A stretch of DNA of 64,000 nt from Lachnospiraceae bacterium UBA5902 (GTDB taxonomy: Bacteria > Bacillota > Clostridia > Lachnospirales > Lachnospiraceae). Location: positions 45,166 through 109,165 of the forward strand of contig DJEI01000072.1 of NCBI GenBank assembly GCA_002431865.1, in the 5' to 3' direction. The position numbers and the translations under genes are program-made. The notes under the pieces are model-generated. The model worked only from the letters and a program-made list of their open reading frames with translations, was not told where the DNA came from and made no database searches. Below, in pieces: positions 5,216 through 14,178 of this stretch. The number at the start of each line of letters is the position of its first letter. The first letter of the stretch is position 1.

Positions 5216-5300
5216 AAAAATGGTCGATTTTGAACCGTTCGTCAAAGAAAAATGCATTTCGTCCCAGAAGGGTTGTCACAACAAGTAAAATATGTTACAA

Positions 5301-5336
5301 AAAAGCATGTTACTATCAGAGTAGCATGTTTTTTTG
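5301..5336 (+). terminator. Rho-independent terminator after dpaB
   Basis: A stem of about 14 bp (aaaagcatgttact pairing with agtagcatgtttt, two G-U pairs) with a 5-base loop runs directly into seven Ts. It lies 86 bases beyond the dpaB stop and before the surface-protein gene, insulating the two. Confidence 0.8.
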
Positions 5337-5435
5337 TTATGGAGACAAGGAATATGCATGCATTTATGCATTGCATTCGATCATCATGCAGAAATGATGA
5401 TTATATTTAACAGAGATAAGAAAGAGAGGGATCAT

Positions 5436-7529
5436 ATGCGAAAAAGAGAGGGAATGAAAAAACGAAGATCAAGGATACTGGCATGGCTGCTGGCGTGCTT
5501 TATGGTGCTGTCTGTGATACAGGGGACAGGCTGGGGCAGTCTCACCGTGCAGGCAGAGGAAGAAGTGAACAGACTTGTAGATCTTGAAATAGAGGGTGAC
5601 TGGGTTATAAATGATGGAACAGTAAAGAAGACGGAGGGGACTGGATGGAGCTATGATGCGGATACAAATGCCCTTACCCTGACGAATGCAAATTTAAAAT
5701 ATATTGGATATGATGGTGGAACTTTGAATTTGCAAATCAATGGCGAAAATACTATAAGTACCATTGATGCAAAAAAGAATAGCCTTTATATTACTGGTAC
5801 TAAAAAGGATAAATTGAATGGTAATTCATTTACGCACATAGTTTTTTTTACTGTAGAGAATATTGAGGTAAATGTTTCAGAATATACTGTAGCAAATATT
5901 ATAAAATTAAAAGATGTAAATTTAAGTTCTAATAATATAAGTGTAAAAACGTTTAGTTGCTCAGGATGTCTGATAAAAGCAACAGAATATTTAGGTATAG
6001 AAGAATTGTTTGATTGCTCAGATAGCGAATTTATATCAGCTGAGACGATATATGGTGATGAGGCAACAAAAAAATATACGAATTCCATTGAGGTAGATAA
6101 TAGCAACAATATTATGAGAATCTATGGAGCGGCGACCTTATGCCAGAATCTGACGATTCCAAGTAATTACACTATTTGGTTTGCGGAAGGTGCAAGCATT
6201 ACGAATCTGGATAAGCTTACTGTAAATGAAGGTGCAAATATTTATGTAAATTATAGAGTGAATGAGGATGGTTTCGATGATTATGATGTACATGAGCATA
6301 ACACCGATGGTGGCGTTACCTGCGAATGGAAGGACGCAGATACACATGTGAAAAAGAGTGTTTGTAAGGATTGCCCGGTTGCATATATAGCAGAAACTGA
6401 ACCAGAATCTCATCACTATAATGAACAGGGCTTTTGTACAGAATGTGATGCTTACCAGCCGGCAGTGCTTACGACAGACCAGTATGATATCAACGGAGAT
6501 AACAGTAAGGATAATGTATACGAAATCAGCAATGCCGGTCAGCTTTACTGGTTTGCGGGGCTTGTAAATGGTACACTTCCATGCGTAGATCAGAATACGT
6601 CCGCAAATGCAGTCCTGACAAATGATATCACAGTCAATGAAAATGTTTTGGTAGGTGGAAAACTTGCAGATGATCCAAGTGAATTCCGAAACTGGACACC
6701 GATAGCAGACAATCTAATAATAGATGGTACTCAATATGGATATAACGGAATATTTGATGGGCAAAATCATAGTATCAGTGGTATATATTGCGATAGTCCA
6801 TATAGAAAAGGTAGTGAATGTGGATTTTTTGTGTATATAGATCTTAAATCTATAGTGAGAGATTTCTCTGTGAAGGATAGTTATATTACAAGTGATGCTT
6901 GTAATATGTTAGGAGGAATTACTGGTCTAAATAACGGGAAGATCCAAGGCTGTTCTTTTGATGGATTAATAACTGGTAATTCCTACATCGGAGGAATATG
7001 CGGAAGAAATGAACGTTATGGCAATATTACAGAATGCTATAATTATGGGGAGCTTATAGCTGCCACAGAAGGTGGTGTAACTGTAGCTGGCGGTATATGT
7101 GCTGAGAACCATTCAACAGTTACAAAGAGTGGGAATTATGGAAATGTCAAAGCGGATCAGTCTGTAGGTGGTATAACAGGAGATAATGGCGGCAGTATTG
7201 TAGATTGTTATAATCAAGGAAATGTCAATATGTCATCAGGTGGCTATTGGGTTGGTGGAATATGTGGATGCATGGATGATGCATCCATTACGAATGGTTA
7301 CAATGTAGGGAATGTAACAGGAAGTGGGGAGCGAGGAGAAATTTATGGGTACCTACAAGGAAATAATATAGTAACGAATTGTTATTATTTGTCTGATACA
7401 GAAATTGATGATAACAAGGATATGGCTGGCAAGACAAAGGAACAGTCTGCAAGTGGTAAGGTTGCCTATCTCTTACAGGAAAAGTGTAAGGATGCAGTCT
7501 GGGGACAGACACTTTCCGAAGAAGGCTGA
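5436..7529 (+). CDS. Large secreted protein, N-terminal part (signal peptide and GLUG-like repeats), ending at an in-frame TGA
   Basis: First segment of a very large extracellular protein. The start at 5436 (MRKREGMKKRRS) follows agagaggg and begins a long signal peptide (basic to residue 13, hydrophobic 14-28, cleavage near VQA at 40). Upstream in-frame codons back to 5334 overlap the terminator and are not used. Residues about 50-330 are unfamiliar, with pectate-lyase-like short beta repeats. Residues about 460-640 are GLUG-like repeats with phrases such as IGGICGRN, VGGITGDN and VGGICGCM. The frame stops at TGA (7527-7529) in the middle of a conserved transition (WGQTLSEE.. PYPVLDGKKVY), and similarity continues in the same frame after it. 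This stretch is visibly richer in AT than its neighbours. Function is unknown; adhesin or polymer binding is inferred. Confidence 0.7.
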   Translation: MRKREGMKKRRSRILAWLLACFMVLSVIQGTGWGSLTVQAEEEVNRLVDLEIEGDWVINDGTVKKTEGTGWSYDADTNALTLTNANLKYIGYDGGTLNLQINGENTISTIDAKKNSLYITGTKKDKLNGNSFTHIVFFTVENIEVNVSEYTVANIIKLKDVNLSSNNISVKTFSCSGCLIKATEYLGIEELFDCSDSEFISAETIYGDEATKKYTNSIEVDNSNNIMRIYGAATLCQNLTIPSNYTIWFAEGASITNLDKLTVNEGANIYVNYRVNEDGFDDYDVHEHNTDGGVTCEWKDADTHVKKSVCKDCPVAYIAETEPESHHYNEQGFCTECDAYQPAVLTTDQYDINGDNSKDNVYEISNAGQLYWFAGLVNGTLPCVDQNTSANAVLTNDITVNENVLVGGKLADDPSEFRNWTPIADNLIIDGTQYGYNGIFDGQNHSISGIYCDSPYRKGSECGFFVYIDLKSIVRDFSVKDSYITSDACNMLGGITGLNNGKIQGCSFDGLITGNSYIGGICGRNERYGNITECYNYGELIAATEGGVTVAGGICAENHSTVTKSGNYGNVKADQSVGGITGDNGGSIVDCYNQGNVNMSSGGYWVGGICGCMDDASITNGYNVGNVTGSGERGEIYGYLQGNNIVTNCYYLSDTEIDDNKDMAGKTKEQSASGKVAYLLQEKCKDAVWGQTLSEEG

Positions 7530-7664
7530 GAGCCATATCCGGTTCTTGATGGCAAAAAGGTTTACCAGAACATATCCTATGATAGCTGTGTCGAGGATAA
7601 GAATAAGATTGTCTATACCTATTCAAATGAGGCAAAGAAGACAACGACATTAGGACATGATTAT

Positions 7665-10214
7665 GTGGTGTCTGAGAAAAAATCGGAGGATGGTACAAGC
7701 GTAACGCTGACAGTTGCCTGTCAGAGAGAGGGCTGCACAGAGCAGACTGACAAGCACGGGGGAACTGTGACATTGACTGTACCAGATTCTCTTACCTATG
7801 ATGGAACTGAAAAGGAAGTAACTGTGAGACAGTCACCGGAGGATGCGTTTGATTCGGTAAAAGTAAGCTATGAGTATGCTTGGGATGGTGATTCCGCATA
7901 TGACAAGCCGGTTTATGCTGGCGATTATACAGCGACTGTGACGGTTCGATTAGGCGAGGAAGAGGCAAGTGCTTCGATTGATTATACGATACAGAAAGCA
8001 AAGCTTTCGGTTGTGAATGCGGAAGCAGCTGAAAAAACATATGATGGTACGACAAAGGTACAGATCACGAATGTATTATTAGACGGCGCATTAAAAAACG
8101 ATGAGGTTGAAGTTGATACAACCGATCTGTATGGCGATCTTTCCGACAAGAATGCCGGTACATATTCAGAGATTACACTGCCAGAAATGGAATTGGTTGG
8201 AGCTGAAGCGGATAATTACGAACTGATCCATCCGACCAATCCGGTAGAATTAGCTACGGATGTGACAATTGACAAGGCATCTATGAACTTAGAGGATGTA
8301 TTTTTGACAAGTGTTTATACAGGTCAGAAGCTGCGGGTCGATCTGGATGCGCTGCTGCCAGCGGATTGCGGAGCGATTACATATGGCAATGCAAAGTGCA
8401 CTGGAGTTATTAGTTATGAGGGAAAACCAGTCATTTCGGACGATGATTTCCTGACATTTGTTACCAAGAGTGGCAATATTGAAGATGCCGGAAGAATTGC
8501 AATCGATGTATCCACAACCAATTATACGGATAATACGATAATTATAGATATCGAATTAGTTGAGAAAATTCCGGTATGCGTTAAAGATGGATATGCGGTT
8601 TCGGTGAAGAACGCATCGCTTACATACGGACAGACCCTTTCCATTCTGAAATTTGAGGATGTTGTGTTTGAAAATGAAGAAGGAAATGTTGTAAAAGGAA
8701 CACTTACATGGAAGAATCCAGATAAAGTACCAGAATATGGAACCCATAGTGAGGAATGGATATTTACACCAGAAGATTCAATTTATGGTACAGCAGAGGG
8801 TACGATATCCGTCAGCGTGGAGAAGGCAATGCCGGAAGTAACAGAGCTTCCAACGGTAACGGATCGTGTGTATCATCCGGGAACCAAGTTGGAGAACAGT
8901 GATTTGATCGGCGGAAAGGTGCTTCATGTAGATGGTACAGAAATGCCTGGTAGCTGGTGGGTAATTGACAAGAGCGTTTTGACGGTGGATAAGCAGGAAT
9001 ATCAGGTACGATTCCAGCCGTCAGATCTGATGGATAAGACCAATTATATTTATCCAGACAGAATGATCACTGTAAATGTTACAAAGGCAACGCCATATAT
9101 CACAGAGATTCCGACCGCAGAAACGCTTACTTATGGAGAGACCTTGAAGGATGTTGCACTGACAGGCGGAAAAGTACAGTACAGCGCGGATGAGGCAATT
9201 GAAGTGGCTGGAATCTTTACATGGAAGCTTGCAGATACGAAACCAACCGTTGCAGACAGTGACAGCACGAATTATATCGTTGTGTTTACACCGGATGACA
9301 GTGTGAATTACGCGACTGTTGAAACACAGGTTTGTGTAACTGTACAGAAAGCGCCAAAGGTTCCAAATATGCCAGAGGCATCTATGGATGTAGATTATAC
9401 GAAGACTACAGTTGGTTCAGTGTCACTTCCGACAGGCTGGAAGTTTGAGAATACGAAGTTGGATACTGCGCTGGAGATCGACAAGCCAGTGACAGTCACA
9501 GCAAACTATGTTGGCGAAGATGCAGGCAACTACGAGGTAGAAAGTGTAGAAATCACACTGACACGGAAGGCATGCACACATTCATCGACCAAGTGGATCG
9601 TCGATAAAGAAGCGACCGTTGATGCAGAGGGAAGCAGACACAAGGAATGTACGGTCTGCAAGACAGTTCTTGCGACAGAGACGATTGCAAAACTTGAAGC
9701 ACCAACACCGGATGTGAGCATCCGCTATACCACACATGTACAGACCTACGGCTGGCAGGGCTGGAAGTACAACGGACAGATGAGTGGAACTTCTGGACAG
9801 GCGAAGCGGCTCGAAGGAATCAATATCAAATTAACAAACAAGCCATACAGCGGAAGCATTGTCTACACAACGCATGTACAGACCTATGGCTGGCAGGGCA
9901 ATGAGAACAATCCAGACACATGGTTCCGTGACGGCGCGATGGCAGGAACTTCTGGACAGGCAAAACGGCTCGAAGCAATCCGTATCGCACTAACTGGCGA
10001 GATGGCAGAGCATTACGACGTGTACTACCGTGTCCATGCACAGTCTTACGGCTGGCTTGGCTGGACGAAGAATGGCGAAGCTGCCGGAACAGCAGGACTT
10101 GCAAAGCGACTCGAAGGAATCCAGATCGTGCTTGTACCGAAGGACGGTAAAGCACCAGCGAATAACTATGGCGGTGTCGTGACGACGAACAGACAAGCGT
10201 ATATAAAGAAATAA
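7665..10214 (+). CDS. Large secreted protein, C-terminal part (YDG/Ig-like domains and three ChW repeats), same frame as the preceding gene
   Basis: This open frame is in phase with 5436-7529 and is separated from it only by the TGA at 7527. The codons 7530-7664 (EPYPVLDGKKVYQNISYDS and on) are also coding-like, so the GTG at 7665 is only a nominal start. Modules in order: an Ig-like segment ending in YTIQKAKL; a YDG-type domain (about 8037-8255, TYDGTTKVQI to NYELIHP); several beta-sandwich repeats starting with SLTYGQTL or TLTYGETL; a Cys/His segment near 9570-9690; and three ChW repeats. It has no signal peptide of its own, so it could be exported only as part of the full-length product. 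This suggests a nonsense mutation, a sequencing error or read-through. No sortase motif is present. Confidence 0.6.
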   Translation: MVSEKKSEDGTSVTLTVACQREGCTEQTDKHGGTVTLTVPDSLTYDGTEKEVTVRQSPEDAFDSVKVSYEYAWDGDSAYDKPVYAGDYTATVTVRLGEEEASASIDYTIQKAKLSVVNAEAAEKTYDGTTKVQITNVLLDGALKNDEVEVDTTDLYGDLSDKNAGTYSEITLPEMELVGAEADNYELIHPTNPVELATDVTIDKASMNLEDVFLTSVYTGQKLRVDLDALLPADCGAITYGNAKCTGVISYEGKPVISDDDFLTFVTKSGNIEDAGRIAIDVSTTNYTDNTIIIDIELVEKIPVCVKDGYAVSVKNASLTYGQTLSILKFEDVVFENEEGNVVKGTLTWKNPDKVPEYGTHSEEWIFTPEDSIYGTAEGTISVSVEKAMPEVTELPTVTDRVYHPGTKLENSDLIGGKVLHVDGTEMPGSWWVIDKSVLTVDKQEYQVRFQPSDLMDKTNYIYPDRMITVNVTKATPYITEIPTAETLTYGETLKDVALTGGKVQYSADEAIEVAGIFTWKLADTKPTVADSDSTNYIVVFTPDDSVNYATVETQVCVTVQKAPKVPNMPEASMDVDYTKTTVGSVSLPTGWKFENTKLDTALEIDKPVTVTANYVGEDAGNYEVESVEITLTRKACTHSSTKWIVDKEATVDAEGSRHKECTVCKTVLATETIAKLEAPTPDVSIRYTTHVQTYGWQGWKYNGQMSGTSGQAKRLEGINIKLTNKPYSGSIVYTTHVQTYGWQGNENNPDTWFRDGAMAGTSGQAKRLEAIRIALTGEMAEHYDVYYRVHAQSYGWLGWTKNGEAAGTAGLAKRLEGIQIVLVPKDGKAPANNYGGVVTTNRQAYIKK
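9720..10133 (+). repeat. Three ChW (clostridial hydrophobic W) repeats inside the surface protein
   Basis: Three tandem copies of about 40 residues share the pattern Y-x2-H-x-Q-x-Y-G-W ... G-x2-(A/S)-G-T-x-G-x-A-K-R-L-E-(A/G)-I-x-I. They lie at about 9720-9834, 9858-9992 and 10020-10133. The second carries a short insertion (NENNPDTWFRDG). ChW repeats occur in secreted clostridial proteins and are thought to mediate wall association or ligand binding. Here they are the only candidate anchor, as no LPxTG or transmembrane segment follows. Confidence 0.85.
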
Positions 10215-10220
10215 CATTTT

Positions 10221-10320
10221 TACACCCGATAAGGTATAATTCAGAAGAAAAACACACAGAATATACCTTATCGGGTGTATTTTATATATAAAACATTGCA
10301 TTTATACCCGATAAGGTGTA
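10221..10320. promoter_or_regulatory. Three copies of a palindromic operator upstream of the hip module
   Basis: An 18-bp site, TAYACC-N6-GGTRTA with spacer CGATAA, occurs three times: 10221-10238 (direct), 10262-10279 (inverted) and 10303-10320 (direct). The half-sites are mirror-symmetric, as expected for a dimeric helix-turn-helix repressor. The third copy ends 30 bases before the hipB start. This fits autoregulation by the HipB-like protein. The first two copies also form a perfect 18-bp inverted repeat around a 23-base loop, flanked by TTTT and TTTTAT, which might double as a terminator for the upstream gene. Confidence 0.8.
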
Positions 10321-10350
10321 AAATGTACAAAAATGACAGGTGGTGATCGT

Positions 10351-10551
10351 ATGAATCAGATTGCAGAATTTATAAAAAAGAATCGTAAAGCAGCGGGACT
10401 GACGCAGGAGCAATTTGCCATGCGGGCGGGGCTTGGCTTGCGTTTTGTACGTGAACTGGAGCAGGGAAAAGAAACAGTGCGCATGGACAAGGTAAACATC
10501 GCACTTGGAATGTTCGGGATGGAGGCAGTTCCGGGAAGGCAGGTTGATTAG
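10351..10551 (+). CDS. hipB: HipB-like XRE-family antitoxin/repressor
   Basis: Small DNA-binding protein (66 residues) consisting almost only of an XRE-type helix-turn-helix: KNRKAAGLTQEQFAMRAGLG followed by recognition helix LRFVRELEQGKETVRMDKV. It begins the gene trio hipB-hipS-hipT and almost certainly binds the three palindromes at 10221-10320. In HipBA/HipBST systems the HTH protein represses the operon and forms part of the neutralising complex. The ATG at 10351 is used: aggtggtg lies 7 bases upstream, while the in-frame ATG at 10333 has no ribosome binding site. It lacks the C-terminal tail of Escherichia coli HipB. The next gene starts 2 bases after its stop. Confidence 0.85.
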   Translation: MNQIAEFIKKNRKAAGLTQEQFAMRAGLGLRFVRELEQGKETVRMDKVNIALGMFGMEAVPGRQVD

Positions 10552-10553
10552 GC

Positions 10554-10886
10554 ATGGATACGATTTTTCGAACGGCATATGTATATGTGCGGAATGTATT
10601 TGCGGGAACACTGTTGGAAACAGACGAGGGATATTCATTTTCCTACGATCAGACATATCTGAAAGATGCGCAAGCAAGTGCTGTATCGTTGACATTGCCT
10701 TTGACGGACAAGGTGTATGAGTCGAAAACGATGTTTCCTTTTTTTGATGGATTGATTCCAGAGGGCTGGCTGCTGGGCGTTGTAAGCAGGAATTGGAAGA
10801 TTGATGTTAAAGATCGGTTTGGACTTTTGCTGGTTGCCTGTAAGGATGCAATCGGAAATGTCAGCATAAGGGAGGAACGTGTATGA
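10554..10886 (+). CDS. hipS: HipS-like protein (stand-alone HipA N-terminal domain)
   Basis: A 110-residue protein equivalent to the N-terminal subdomain of HipA (couple_hipA family), encoded as a separate gene. Visible markers are the beta-strand start AYVYVRNVFAGTLLE, the SVSLTLPL-like segment (here AVSLTLPLTDKVYES) and the conserved FFDGLIPEGWLL before a helical end. In the Escherichia coli O127 HipBST system the corresponding HipS is the antitoxin that inhibits the HipT kinase; by analogy this protein may act the same way. Its last codon overlaps the hipT start (ATGA at 10883-10886), implying translational coupling. The separation is not a frameshift: both parts have their own start, and HipT begins with an extra Cys/His motif. 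Confidence 0.85.
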   Translation: MDTIFRTAYVYVRNVFAGTLLETDEGYSFSYDQTYLKDAQASAVSLTLPLTDKVYESKTMFPFFDGLIPEGWLLGVVSRNWKIDVKDRFGLLLVACKDAIGNVSIREERV

Positions 10887-11851
10887 ATTGTCTATGCTGT
10901 GGAAAACCATTGAAGAAGGAAACGAAATCGGGTTGGCATGCATCATGTATAAAGCATTTTTTTGGCACGGATATGATACCGGAAATAGATATCAAAGAAC
11001 AGACGTTGATGACGATTGCGGTGGAATCAATTCAAAAAGGTTTTACGGTTCCGGGGGTACAAAAGAAATTATCGCTGCATTTGCTGTCAGAAAAAAATAA
11101 GCCGCGTCTCACACTTGTGAATTATCCGACGGGGTATATCCTGAAACCACAGGTGGAGCAGTTCGAAGCATTGCCAGAGGCGGAACAACTGGTTATGACA
11201 ATGGCAGATACAATCGGGATTGCAACGGTTCCGCATGCCTTGATGAAGGGAGATGGAGATCTGGCATATATAACGCGACGCGTTGACCGGGTGCCGGATG
11301 GTGAATATATGAAGATGCTTGCGATGGAAGACTTCTGTCAGCTTGATCTGCGTCTGACACAGGACAAATACAAAGGTTCTTATGAGCGATGTGCGAAAAT
11401 AATAGAACGGTACTCTTGTCGAAAAGGCTTGGATATGGCGGAATTATTTATGAGACTGGTTTTTTGCTTTGTGGTTGGAAATTCGGATATGCATTTGAAG
11501 AATTTCTCGTTGCTTGAAACTGGAGAGGGCACTGGCACATACAGTTTGTCACCTGCGTATGATCTGCTTCCGGTGAATGTAATCATGCCGGAGGATAAGG
11601 AACAGTTTGCACTGGCGATGAATGGAAAGAAACGGAATCTTCATAGAAAGGACTTTTTGGTTTATGCAGATGTATGTGGAATATCCAGAGTGTCCGCAGA
11701 GAAGATGCTGGATGCGGTGATAGAGCAACGTGAGAGGTTTGTTGCAATGTGCGAAGCGTCGTTGCTTCCGAAACATCTAAAAGAGCGGTTTGAGAAGCTG
11801 ATACAGGAACGATGCGATGCAATCATGAAAAGAACGCAGAGGGAGGAGTAA
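10883..11851 (+). CDS. hipT: HipT-like serine/threonine kinase toxin
   Basis: HipA-fold kinase of 322 residues. Its N-terminus carries a zinc-ribbon-like C3-x2-C6 ... H19-x2-C22. The Gly-rich loop follows (residues 53-64, GFTVPGVQKKLS). Next come the ATP lysine in YILKPQ (K88), the catalytic N200-S-D202-M-H-L-K-N207 and the metal aspartate in SPAYDLLP (D227). HipA/HipT kinases phosphorylate aminoacyl-tRNA synthetases (GltX for HipA, TrpS for Escherichia coli HipT) and stop growth; the target here is unknown. Where HipT normally has an autophosphorylated S-x-S before GxQ, this protein has T55-V-P57. It is the last gene of the trio and ends inside the terminator at 11836-11875. It could be inactive, but every core kinase residue is present. 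Confidence 0.88.
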   Translation: MNCLCCGKPLKKETKSGWHASCIKHFFGTDMIPEIDIKEQTLMTIAVESIQKGFTVPGVQKKLSLHLLSEKNKPRLTLVNYPTGYILKPQVEQFEALPEAEQLVMTMADTIGIATVPHALMKGDGDLAYITRRVDRVPDGEYMKMLAMEDFCQLDLRLTQDKYKGSYERCAKIIERYSCRKGLDMAELFMRLVFCFVVGNSDMHLKNFSLLETGEGTGTYSLSPAYDLLPVNVIMPEDKEQFALAMNGKKRNLHRKDFLVYADVCGISRVSAEKMLDAVIEQRERFVAMCEASLLPKHLKERFEKLIQERCDAIMKRTQREE

Positions 11852-11875
11852 ATTGCTCCAACCTCTGCATTTTTT
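11836..11875. terminator. Terminator between hipT and asnB
   Basis: GCAGAGG (11836-11842) pairs with CCTCTGC (11862-11868), extended inward by GGAG/CTCC, and is followed by six Ts on the plus strand. The complement of the upstream bases (gttctttt on the minus strand) gives asnB a modest U-run too, so it may serve both convergent genes. The hipT stop lies in the stem-loop. Confidence 0.8.
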
Positions 11876-11885
11876 ATGCAATGAG

Positions 11886-13724
11886 CTATAACATATATTT
11901 CCGCATCCAGTAGTCGACCTGAAGCAGGTAGGCGATCATCTGCGGCCCGGCCATGAGCTGACCGAACCAAGGCTTTCCGTATTCTTTTGGCTCGTCGAGG
12001 AACTTTAGCACCGCAGGGATGTTCAGGTAGCTCCGGAGCGGAGATGCGGTGTCGGTGACGACTTCGCGCAGGCGGTTTGCAAGCACGCGTTCGTATTCCG
12101 GGTGATAGGTCTTCGGATAAGGGCTTTTTGGACGGTGCATGATCGTGTCCGGCAGGTATTTGGCGGCACAGGCACGGAGCAGACTCTTCGGAATACCGTC
12201 CTTGGCTTTGATCGACCAAGGAATATTGAATACATAGTCGACGACACGGTAATCGGCGAATGGCACTCTGGCTTCGAGTCCGTGCTGCATGGATGTGCGA
12301 TCCATGCGGTCAAGCAGTGTCTGCATGAACCAGCGGATATTCAGATAGGCAATCTGCCGTTTCTTCGTATCGAGCGGCGATTCCTCCGGCAGGATATTGA
12401 CCTCGGAGAGTGTCGCGCGGTATGCTCTGGCGATATATTTTTCCATCTGCATGCTGGCGGCAAATTCCGGGTGGAGCAGGGATTTGCGGAAGGAGATATC
12501 CATCGTCCACGGGAAGGTGTTCGATTGCAGCATGGCGTCACGGTGGAACCATGGATAGCCGCCGAAAATTTCGTCGGCACATTCGCCGGTCAATGTGACC
12601 TTGTGGTGCTTCGCAACTTCTCCACAGAAATACAACAGTGACGAATCGACATCCGCCATTGTTGGCAGACACCGACTGTCGACGGACGCTTCAAGCAGAT
12701 CAGCAAGCTGCGTGTAAGAACATGTCAGGTAGATGTGGTCGGAATGCAGATAGTCCTTCATAATATCAACGTAAGGACGGTCTTCACTCGGCTGGAAGCT
12801 GTTCGCCTGAAAATAAACGGCATTGTCGGTGTAGTCGAAGGAGTACGTGGTAAGCGGTGTATCATTTGGCAGAAAATGATGGCACACAGCGGATACATAC
12901 GAGGAGTCCACGCCGCCGGAGAGCAGGGTGGAGATCGGAACATCGGACACCATCTGCATACGGATACTGTCTTCGAGCAAATAAGAGGTTTTTTCTATCG
13001 TTTCCTCGTAGCTGTCGGTGTGTGGATGACTCTCAATCCGGTAGTATAGCCGGGAAGTCATATACTGCGGCGAGTAGGTCAGATATTCGCCGGGCTTGAT
13101 CTCTTTGATCCCGGAGAATACACCTTTGCCGTACGTCTTTGCCGGTCCGAGGGAGAAGATCTCGTTGAAGCTGTTCATGTCGATGCATGGACGGACGCGC
13201 GGATATTCAAACAGCGTATCAATTCTCGATGCGAACACGAGCGTATCTCCGGTTTTCGTATAATAAAGCGGTTTGACACCGAAACGGTCACGGTAGAGGT
13301 AGAGTGTATTTCGCATGCTGTCGTAGATGGCAATTGCGAAGATACCGTTTAATTCTTTGACAAAGCCCGGTCCGTAATGACAGAACGCGGCGATGATGAC
13401 TTCGGTATCGGAGTTGGTTTCAAAGGTATAGTTTTTCTGGAGCAATGTTTTCTTTACTTCTTTGTAGTTGTAGATTTCGCCATTGTATACGATATAGTAG
13501 GTGTTTCCATCCTTCGTATAAGACATGGGCTGTCTGCCGTTTTCGAGATCAATGATAGACAGGCGTGTGTGCGCAAGGCAGCACGAATTTATGATGGTAT
13601 GACCGTAGGTGTCCGGCCCGCGGTGGTTCATCGTATTGATCATACGGGAAAGCGTATGAAAGTTTTGCTTGGGATTTTCCGCATAGTTCTGGTCTGGGTT
13701 AAAGTAGCCCGCAATGCCACACAT
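11886..13724 (-). CDS. asnB: Asparagine synthase (glutamine-hydrolysing)
   Basis: Makes asparagine from aspartate, glutamine and ATP. The class II glutaminase domain comes first: C2 is the nucleophile exposed after Met removal (MCGIAGYF), and conserved RLSIIDLENGRQPM and YNGEIYNYKEV follow. The synthetase domain carries the PP-loop ATP motif STLLSGGVDSSYVSAV and LTGECADEIFGGYPWF. Its 612 residues are the usual length. RFGVKPLYY in the linker is conserved. The gene is monocistronic and minus-strand, between the hip module and the inverted-repeat element, with no obvious T-box leader. The ATG at 13724 is fixed by the requirement for Cys2. Confidence 0.95.
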   Translation of the reverse strand: MCGIAGYFNPDQNYAENPKQNFHTLSRMINTMNHRGPDTYGHTIINSCCLAHTRLSIIDLENGRQPMSYTKDGNTYYIVYNGEIYNYKEVKKTLLQKNYTFETNSDTEVIIAAFCHYGPGFVKELNGIFAIAIYDSMRNTLYLYRDRFGVKPLYYTKTGDTLVFASRIDTLFEYPRVRPCIDMNSFNEIFSLGPAKTYGKGVFSGIKEIKPGEYLTYSPQYMTSRLYYRIESHPHTDSYEETIEKTSYLLEDSIRMQMVSDVPISTLLSGGVDSSYVSAVCHHFLPNDTPLTTYSFDYTDNAVYFQANSFQPSEDRPYVDIMKDYLHSDHIYLTCSYTQLADLLEASVDSRCLPTMADVDSSLLYFCGEVAKHHKVTLTGECADEIFGGYPWFHRDAMLQSNTFPWTMDISFRKSLLHPEFAASMQMEKYIARAYRATLSEVNILPEESPLDTKKRQIAYLNIRWFMQTLLDRMDRTSMQHGLEARVPFADYRVVDYVFNIPWSIKAKDGIPKSLLRACAAKYLPDTIMHRPKSPYPKTYHPEYERVLANRLREVVTDTASPLRSYLNIPAVLKFLDEPKEYGKPWFGQLMAGPQMIAYLLQVDYWMRKYML

Positions 13725-13804: not shown

Positions 13805-14178
13805 CGGAAATTGTAAATATACAGTTTGATATTCATATATTTTATACGAATTCATGAAATATACGATGTATTGTATCTAAGAAGTTCTACAATGTTCTGA
13901 TAAATATAATGTAGTAGTACGCAACCACCGGATTGGTATTGCCCCCTCGCGTTGCTCGGCGGCAGATTGTCGGGCGCATCCTAAATATGAACTCCGTTCA
14001 TATGCGCCCTCCGCTTGCCATCCATGGCTCAGTGGCAGTTTGTTTGAACATCGTGTTCAAACATTGCTGGTGTTTGTACAGAACATTAAGAACTTCTAAG
14101 ATACAAACATATGCATATTTCATGAATTTGTATAAAAATATATGAATTATCTACGACTGTATATTGTTACAATTTCCG
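13805..14178. repeat. MITE-like element with ~100-bp imperfect terminal inverted repeats (gene-free)
   Basis: This stretch between asnB and the second dacF has no credible gene. Its outer arms (about 13805-13910 and 14080-14178) are inverted copies of each other. Both begin CGGAAATTGTAA and share, in order, ATACAGT, TTCATATATTTT, AATTCATGAAATAT, GTATCT and AGAAGTTCT, with scattered mismatches and small gaps. Between the AT-rich arms is a GC-richer core with further hairpins: GGGCGCAT (13972-13979) with ATGCGCCC (14002-14009) enclosing ATGAAC/GTTCAT, and GTTTGAACA-tcg-TGTTCAAAC (14042-14062). No target-site duplication is evident. A miniature transposable element or a long structured RNA are the readings considered. 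Confidence 0.7.

What the first reader, a model, noticed from the sequence alone, without database searches (positions are those of the whole stretch)
10351..11851. Tripartite HipBST-like toxin-antitoxin module with variant Gly-rich loop
hipA is encoded here as two separate proteins: a 110-residue HipS-like N-terminal domain and a 322-residue HipT-like kinase, behind a 66-residue HTH repressor. The genes are tightly coupled (ATGA overlap at 10883). This is the layout of Escherichia coli HipBST, in which HipS is the antitoxin and HipT phosphorylates TrpS. The kinase shows two oddities: a C3-x2-C6/H19-x2-C22 zinc-finger-like N-terminus, and T55-V-P57 in the Gly-rich loop where HipT has the regulatory S-x-S. 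All catalytic residues are kept.
Basis: partly seen in the sequence, partly recalled or inferred. Interest (0 to 1): 0.75.

Follow-up and report, generated by a model that had tools for sequence, protein, structure and literature searches.

The report
Ordinary three-gene HipBST toxin-antitoxin module
This looks like a normal member of a known, widespread three-gene bacterial toxin-antitoxin family; the two features that seemed odd are usual among its relatives, while its zinc-finger-like tip and evenly spaced control sites look little studied.

Summary
In detail: hipB (10351-10551), hipS (10554-10886) and hipT (10883-11851, ATGA overlap) form an intact tripartite operon. It is a HipBST-type toxin-antitoxin module, but neither unique nor especially E. 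coli-like. HipT and HipS match the Legionella pair best (149 and 76 bits; E. coli HipBST 62 and 45); TrpS did not rescue Legionella HipT toxicity (PMC10653801), so TrpS should not be assumed. Both 'oddities' are usual in this branch: T-[VI]-P in 120 of the 120 listed nearest clusters, C-x2-C/[HC]-x2-C in 119; in 82 fetched loci plus the window, C3/C6/C22 are kept in 83 of 83 and H19 in 82. T[IV][TP] loops are in print (PMC10627512). The split is real: hipS is separate in 82 of 82 loci.

Not found in my paper searches: (i) the N-terminal HipT 'mini-domain of unknown significance' is here a conserved zinc-knuckle-like element, degenerate in E. coli; (ii) three 18-bp operators at 41-bp pitch, the nearest filling the -35/-10 spacer, recurring across phyla. 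The module lies in a 6.7-kb segment absent from two close relatives. Verdict: new member of a known kind.

The parts
10221..10238 (.). distal operator-like 18-bp site TAYACC-N6-GGTRTA
   Evidence: with the pattern TAYACCNNATMNGGTRTA the genome holds 3 exact sites, all here
10262..10279 (.). middle operator-like site, 41 bp from each neighbour, opposite orientation
10303..10320 (.). proximal operator-like site, filling the spacer of the predicted promoter
10296..10324 (+). predicted promoter: -35 TTGCAT (10296-10301; consensus of relatives TTGACA), 17-nt spacer, -10 TAAAAT (10319-10324)
   Evidence: letters; consensus over 73 proximal sites; not found by the generic promoter scan
10351..10551 (+). 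hipB: 66-aa HTH protein, predicted autorepressor
   Evidence: TIGR03070 couple_hipB 75.5 bits, HTH_3
10554..10886 (+). hipS: 110-aa HipA N-subdomain-1 protein, predicted antitoxin; E70 and W72 lie where E. coli HipS has E63 and W65
   Evidence: PF13657 84.1 bits; HipS(Lp) 75.7 bits, HipS(Ec) 44.6; E70 and W72 in 83 of 83
10883..11851 (+). hipT: 322-aa HipA-type kinase, predicted toxin
10889..10948 (+). codons for HipT residues C3-C22: zinc-knuckle-like mini-domain C-x2-C ... H-x2-C
   Evidence: C3, C6, C22 in 83 of 83, H19 in 82 of 83; pLDDT 87-90 for residues 1-30
11042..11068 (+). codons for F54-K62: Gly-rich loop F-T55-V-P57-G-V-Q-K-K
5218..11887 (.). segment absent from relatives G035 and G006 (about 60 and 78 bp there instead); carries a secreted-protein gene region plus hipBST

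Best explanation
An intact, patchily inherited HipBST-type toxin-antitoxin module. HipT is a HipA-fold Ser/Thr kinase that, when free, would arrest growth by phosphorylating a host protein, most likely in translation (perhaps an aminoacyl-tRNA synthetase, not necessarily TrpS). HipS sits where the HipA N-subdomain-1 would sit, pushes its Glu70/Trp72 into the active site and holds the Gly-rich loop out, so ATP cannot bind. HipB dimers, carrying HipT-HipS, bind three 18-bp operators 41 bp (about four DNA turns) apart, the nearest lying between -35 and -10, and so shut off the operon. Thr55 is the single likely autophosphorylation site, as Ser54 is in Legionella HipT. The N-terminal Cys3-Cys6-His19-Cys22 element probably binds zinc and shapes the segment leading into the Gly-rich loop. 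Shown: gene anatomy, conservation, predicted fold, recurring operator-like array, segment absent from two relatives. Inferred: toxicity, neutralisation by HipS, repression by HipB, zinc binding, autophosphorylation, target.
Against: Every step beyond sequence and predicted fold is untested for this locus. The target is unknown. The -35 in the window is poor (TTGCAT) and the generic scan did not find this promoter; it found fewer promoter-like sites than its shuffles (2 against a mean of 4.3). Foldseek on the mini-domain alone gave nothing significant, and Pfam gave no zinc family above cut-off in 5 mini-domains scanned. 5 of 77 loci have fewer than two operator sites. Two loci (L054, L084) have hipB about 450 bp from hipS and one (L055) has none found, so the three-gene block is not absolute. 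The loci were chosen by likeness to HipT (best 80 of at least 571).
Confidence: 0.85

Rival explanations
1. HipS is needed for HipT activity (a split enzyme whose two parts must reassemble) rather than being an inhibitor.
For: HipS is the HipA N-subdomain-1, which is part of the toxin in HipA; the two were co-encoded in 82 of 82 loci.
Against: In the E. coli and Legionella systems HipS neutralises HipT; HipS abolishes ATP binding in Legionella and the loop is held out in the E. coli structure (PMC9325769, PMC10627512). The inhibitory Trp is kept here in 83 of 83.
Confidence: 0.06
2. Inactive remnant, or a regulatory kinase domesticated for a host function and no longer a toxin.
For: It is the only HipA_C and the only Couple_hipA found in the genome; the nearest database cluster (96% identity, clustered at 90%) has 365 member sequences (P0001).
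Against: Catalytic residues intact, three exact operator sites. Patchy: matches with E below 1e-100 in 3 of 37 genomes of the genus, the window's own included, and in 2 of 299 drawn from the phylum, again with the own; segment absent from two relatives; the two same-genus HipTs are not nearest in the tree.
Confidence: 0.08
3. Apparent split from a sequencing or assembly frameshift in a fused hipA.
For: None beyond the tight overlap.
Against: Separate hipS in 82 of 82 loci, 4-nt overlap in 63 of 81, and a conserved Cys-rich N-terminus on the kinase.
Confidence: 0.01

Closest known systems
HipBST of Legionella pneumophila (Lpg2368-2370; PMC9325769, PMC10653801)
   Same: Gene order; highest sequence and fold scores for HipT and highest sequence score for HipS; a single hydroxyl residue at the two regulatory loop positions; three evenly spaced 18-nt operators, the nearest overlapping the predicted promoter.
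   Different: Loop T-V-P instead of S-V-Q; HipS has Trp where Legionella has Ile; operator gaps 23 bp (41-bp pitch) instead of 53 bp. Whether the Legionella protein has the four Cys/His was not looked up.
HipBST of E. coli O127:H6 (PMC6581861, PMC10627512)
   Same: Gene order, HipS Glu/Trp plug, kinase residues, an N-terminal mini-domain before the Gly-rich loop.
   Different: 62 against 149 bits for HipT; S-I-S loop; in the alignment its mini-domain keeps only the first of the four Cys/His; TrpS is its published target.
HipBA of E. coli K-12
   Same: Kinase fold and HTH partner.
   Different: N-subdomain-1 fused; about 27 bits at best; outside the split HipTs in the tree, on a very long branch.
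Split hipA modules of Bacteroidota (for example the Bacteroides finegoldii plasmid, H1/L148)
   Same: Same three genes, same Cys/His element.
   Different: About 42-44% identity; loop T-x-T or S-x-T.

Membership tests
HipBST toxin-antitoxin modules | three adjacent genes in order HTH protein, HipA N-subdomain-1 protein, kinase | tested here: met
   hipS separate in 82 of 82 and hipB found in 79 of 82 relatives
HipBST toxin-antitoxin modules | kinase lacks N-subdomain-1 but keeps the Hip kinase motifs | tested here: met
HipBST toxin-antitoxin modules | HipT arrests growth and HipS, not HipB, neutralises it | not testable with these tools
   needs expression in a laboratory strain
HipBST toxin-antitoxin modules | operators in the promoter bound by HipB | tested here: inconclusive
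   operator-like array present; binding not tested
E. coli-type HipBST (S-aliphatic-S group) | two serines in the Gly-rich loop | tested here: not met
   T55-V-P57; position 57 is P or A in 72 of 83
E. coli-type HipBST (S-aliphatic-S group) | phosphorylates TrpS | not testable with these tools
   needs phosphoproteomics
Legionella-type HipBST subclade | groups with HipT(Lp) in a tree | tested here: inconclusive
   best scoring solved relative, but Legionella proteins were left out of the tree on purpose
HipBA | toxin with fused N-subdomain-1 | tested here: not met
zinc-binding domains | four conserved Cys/His ligands | tested here: met
   C3, C6, C22 83 of 83; H19 82 of 83
zinc-binding domains | recognised zinc-finger fold or family | tested here: inconclusive
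zinc-binding domains | binds a metal | not testable with these tools
   needs ICP-MS or a crystal structure

The most novel reading that the evidence does not exclude
In this mainly anaerobe branch of HipBST the zinc-knuckle mini-domain, which leads into the Gly-rich loop, is a metal- or redox-responsive switch: loss or oxidation of the metal site unlocks the loop or releases HipS and turns the kinase on, so that the module senses oxidative or metal stress directly in the toxin instead of by antitoxin degradation.
Probability: 0.1. Interest if true: 0.65.

Novelty: new member of a known kind. Interest (0 to 1): 0.3.

Why it matters
The HipBST studies I saw rest on a few proteobacterial systems, while thousands of related kinases exist (7,700 matches among 7,998 scored candidates) and the 80 named loci fetched come mostly from Bacillota, with Bacteroidota and Spirochaetota. 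This locus shows that the mini-domain called 'of unknown significance' in E. coli HipT is a near-invariant Cys3His element in that branch, and that an operator-like array of fixed 41-bp pitch inside the promoter recurs across phyla. Both give direct, cheap tests (metal content, Cys mutants, HipB footprinting).

Tried and rejected
Frameshift artefact: rejected (82 of 82 loci split). T-V-P as a unique variant: rejected. TrpS as the expected target: not carried over, because TrpS did not rescue the best-scoring studied relative. Defence system: PADLOC gave only weak partial matches (HipT to PDC-M03A, best E 1.5e-5; HipS to PDC-M03B, best E 5.5e-6; HipB to HTH models, best E 3.1e-6), not pursued. 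Phage carriage: 1 partial hit in 50,697 phage records and 7 loci in the viral contigs from two short peptide patterns, not read further. Plasmids: 1,386 records with a match, none of 60% identity or more; two stretches opened. Rfam: one match in the window, not at the module. Fold of the mini-domain alone: 5 Foldseek hits, three LIM chains, one RING chain and one E. coli ribosome chain, all at E 3.5 or worse, no VIA match, so no fold is claimed. Paper searches for a zinc element in Hip kinases and for operators of non-Legionella HipBST listed nothing on either; the single listing (PMC12482156, a Naegleria/Legionella genomics paper) was not opened, nor were the lesser listings. The library lacks most subscription journals, and only passages or named sections of five papers were read. 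Tree: quick search with SH-aLRT only, 66 of the 82 split-HipT loci and 12 of the genus HipA rows used, no Legionella row; the tool warned of long branches among the HipA rows and E. coli HipA, so only the nesting of the window among split HipTs is used. The script, a first look for any palindrome, found three copies in 34 loci and is superseded by the pattern scan. The distances from operator to hipB start depend on a guessed start codon and are not used.

Full report
1. The observation. The window holds three tightly packed genes on the + strand: hipB 10351-10551 (66 aa), hipS 10554-10886 (110 aa) and hipT 10883-11851 (322 aa), the last two overlapping by ATGA. Family scans give couple_hipB for the first, Couple_hipA (HipA N-terminal domain) for the second and HipA_C for the third. 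In the genome, 87.7% complete, one HipA_C and one Couple_hipA match were found, these two.

3. The split is real. In these 82, hipS is a separate ORF in 82, and hipB was found in 79 (two of the three misses lie at a contig edge). Of 81 loci where the kinase start could be set from its Cys motif, 63 have the same 4-nt overlap. The sample was chosen by similarity to HipT, so it says nothing on how common fused forms are elsewhere.

4. The two 'oddities' are standard here. Of the 120 nearest protein clusters listed (of 7,700 matches among the 7,998 candidates scored), 119 have C-x2-C...[HC]-x2-C at the N-terminus and 120 have T-[VI]-P. Over 82 loci plus the window, C3, C6 and C22 are kept in 83 of 83 and H19 in 82; position 55 is T in 75, A in 4, S in 3, L in 1; position 57 is P in 68, T in 10, A in 4, S in 1. 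A 2023 paper (PMC10627512; passages read) already lists (S/T)-aliphatic-P loops among 48 HipT orthologues and names a T[IV][TP] group, and calls residues 1-41 of E. coli HipT a mini-domain of unknown significance. In the alignment E. coli HipT keeps C3 but has Leu, Ser and Gly at the positions of C6, H19 and C22. So the likely story is a zinc-knuckle-like element that the E. coli branch has lost or never had. That it binds zinc is inference: Pfam and Foldseek on the element alone were not significant.

5. How it probably works. In E. [quoted passage not shown] in Legionella, HipS turns the loop into a helix and ends ATP binding (PMC9325769; passages). Here the Trp (HipS W72) and the Glu (E70) are present in 83 of 83 sequences, while Legionella has Ile at the Trp position. 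The kinase residues are kept. T55 stands at the place of the autophosphorylated serine, and the second site is absent, as in Legionella. The target cannot be told from sequence: TrpS is the target of E. coli HipT, but neither TrpS nor GltX rescued Legionella HipT toxicity (PMC10653801; passages and sections 6 and 9 read).

6. The operators. Upstream of hipB lie three 18-bp sites TAYACC-N6-GGTRTA at 10221, 10262 and 10303, exactly 41 bp apart; the window has no other exact one. With the slightly stricter pattern TAYACCNNATMNGGTRTA the genome holds three exact sites, all here; one mismatch adds one site elsewhere, while the reversed control pattern gives 0 and 3 hits on the two strands at that setting. 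With the window's pattern (up to 2 mismatches in 12 positions) the 220 bp upstream of hipB were scanned in 77 of the 82 loci (3 lack hipB, 2 have too little upstream): 207 sites in 16,882 bp, against 52 in 452,285 bp of the rest of these loci and 4 in one shuffle of the upstream DNA. 56 loci have three sites, 14 two, 2 four, 3 one, 2 none; 124 of 132 spacings are 40-42 bp and 6 more are 80-82. Loci with two or more sites by phylum: Bacillota 55 of 59, Bacteroidota 5 of 5, Spirochaetota 5 of 5, Mycoplasmatota 1 of 2, Chloroflexota 1 of 1, Lentisphaerota 1 of 1, same genus or unassigned 4 of 4 (many are metagenome bins, so single-locus phyla are unsure). Aligned on the proximal site of 73 loci (window included), the consensus is TTGACA, then a 17-nt spacer filled by the operator, then TAaaAT; the leading TA of the -10 is partly demanded by the search pattern, the TTGACA and the final AT are not. 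The window fits the spacing with a weaker -35, TTGCAT, and TAAAAT; the generic promoter scan does not list it. Three evenly spaced operators are known for Legionella HipBST, with 53-bp gaps; I found no description of the 41-bp array.

7. Spread. Homologues with E below 1e-100 occur in 3 of 37 genomes of the genus, the own included, and in 2 of 299 genomes drawn from the phylum, the own and one same-genus genome; weaker matches in 14 more same-genus genomes are to other HipA-type kinases or fragments. In a quick tree of 83 kinases the window groups with an Eisenbergiella and a Eubacterium sequence (support 80), while the two same-genus copies fall outside a 38-row set around the window (support 97); the split HipTs exclude an Aliivibrio fischeri pair, one of which is 49% identical to E. 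coli HipT over the 235-residue stretch compared, and the HipA rows, but the HipA branches are long. In the two close relatives whose fetched regions hold both flanks (of five regions fetched), the sequence from about 5218 to 11887 is replaced by about 60 and 78 bp. I saw no clear target-site duplication in the junctions (by eye only) and made no search for an integrase beyond the Pfam scan of the two long ORFs of the segment. Gain of a 6.7-kb segment, or its loss in relatives, both fit; the tree leans to gain.

8. Verdict. An intact HipBST-type module, a new member of a known kind. The parts worth a specialist's time are the conserved Cys3His element of HipT and the phased operator array, both properties of the branch and not of this locus.

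Noticed in passing
window 10221-10320: Three 18-bp operator-like palindromes at exact 41-bp pitch upstream of hipB; the array and its promoter overlap recur in relatives from several phyla.
   Followed up: yes
window 5218-11887: A 6.7-kb segment (secreted-protein gene region plus hipBST) is absent from two close relatives at the same place between a flavoprotein gene (PF02441) and an asnB-like gene (name recalled from its sequence, not scanned).
   Followed up: partly
window 5334-7529 and 7665-10214: Two long ORFs in different frames (a sub-threshold GLUG motif in the first; YDG and ChW domains in the second) look like one secreted-protein gene that is interrupted.
   Followed up: no
window 13931-14016 (- strand): GA-cis RNA (RF02987, 81.9 bits) lies about 200 nt upstream of the asnB-like gene 11886-13724 (-).
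   Followed up: no
P0002: A 413-aa relative seems to repeat its first ~100 residues in tandem, by duplication or misassembly.
   Followed up: no
L147 3765-4802: An Aliivibrio fischeri plasmid has a second HipT-like gene directly after a hipBST set.
   Followed up: no
L054, L084: hipB lies about 450 bp upstream of hipS, so the block is interrupted.
   Followed up: no
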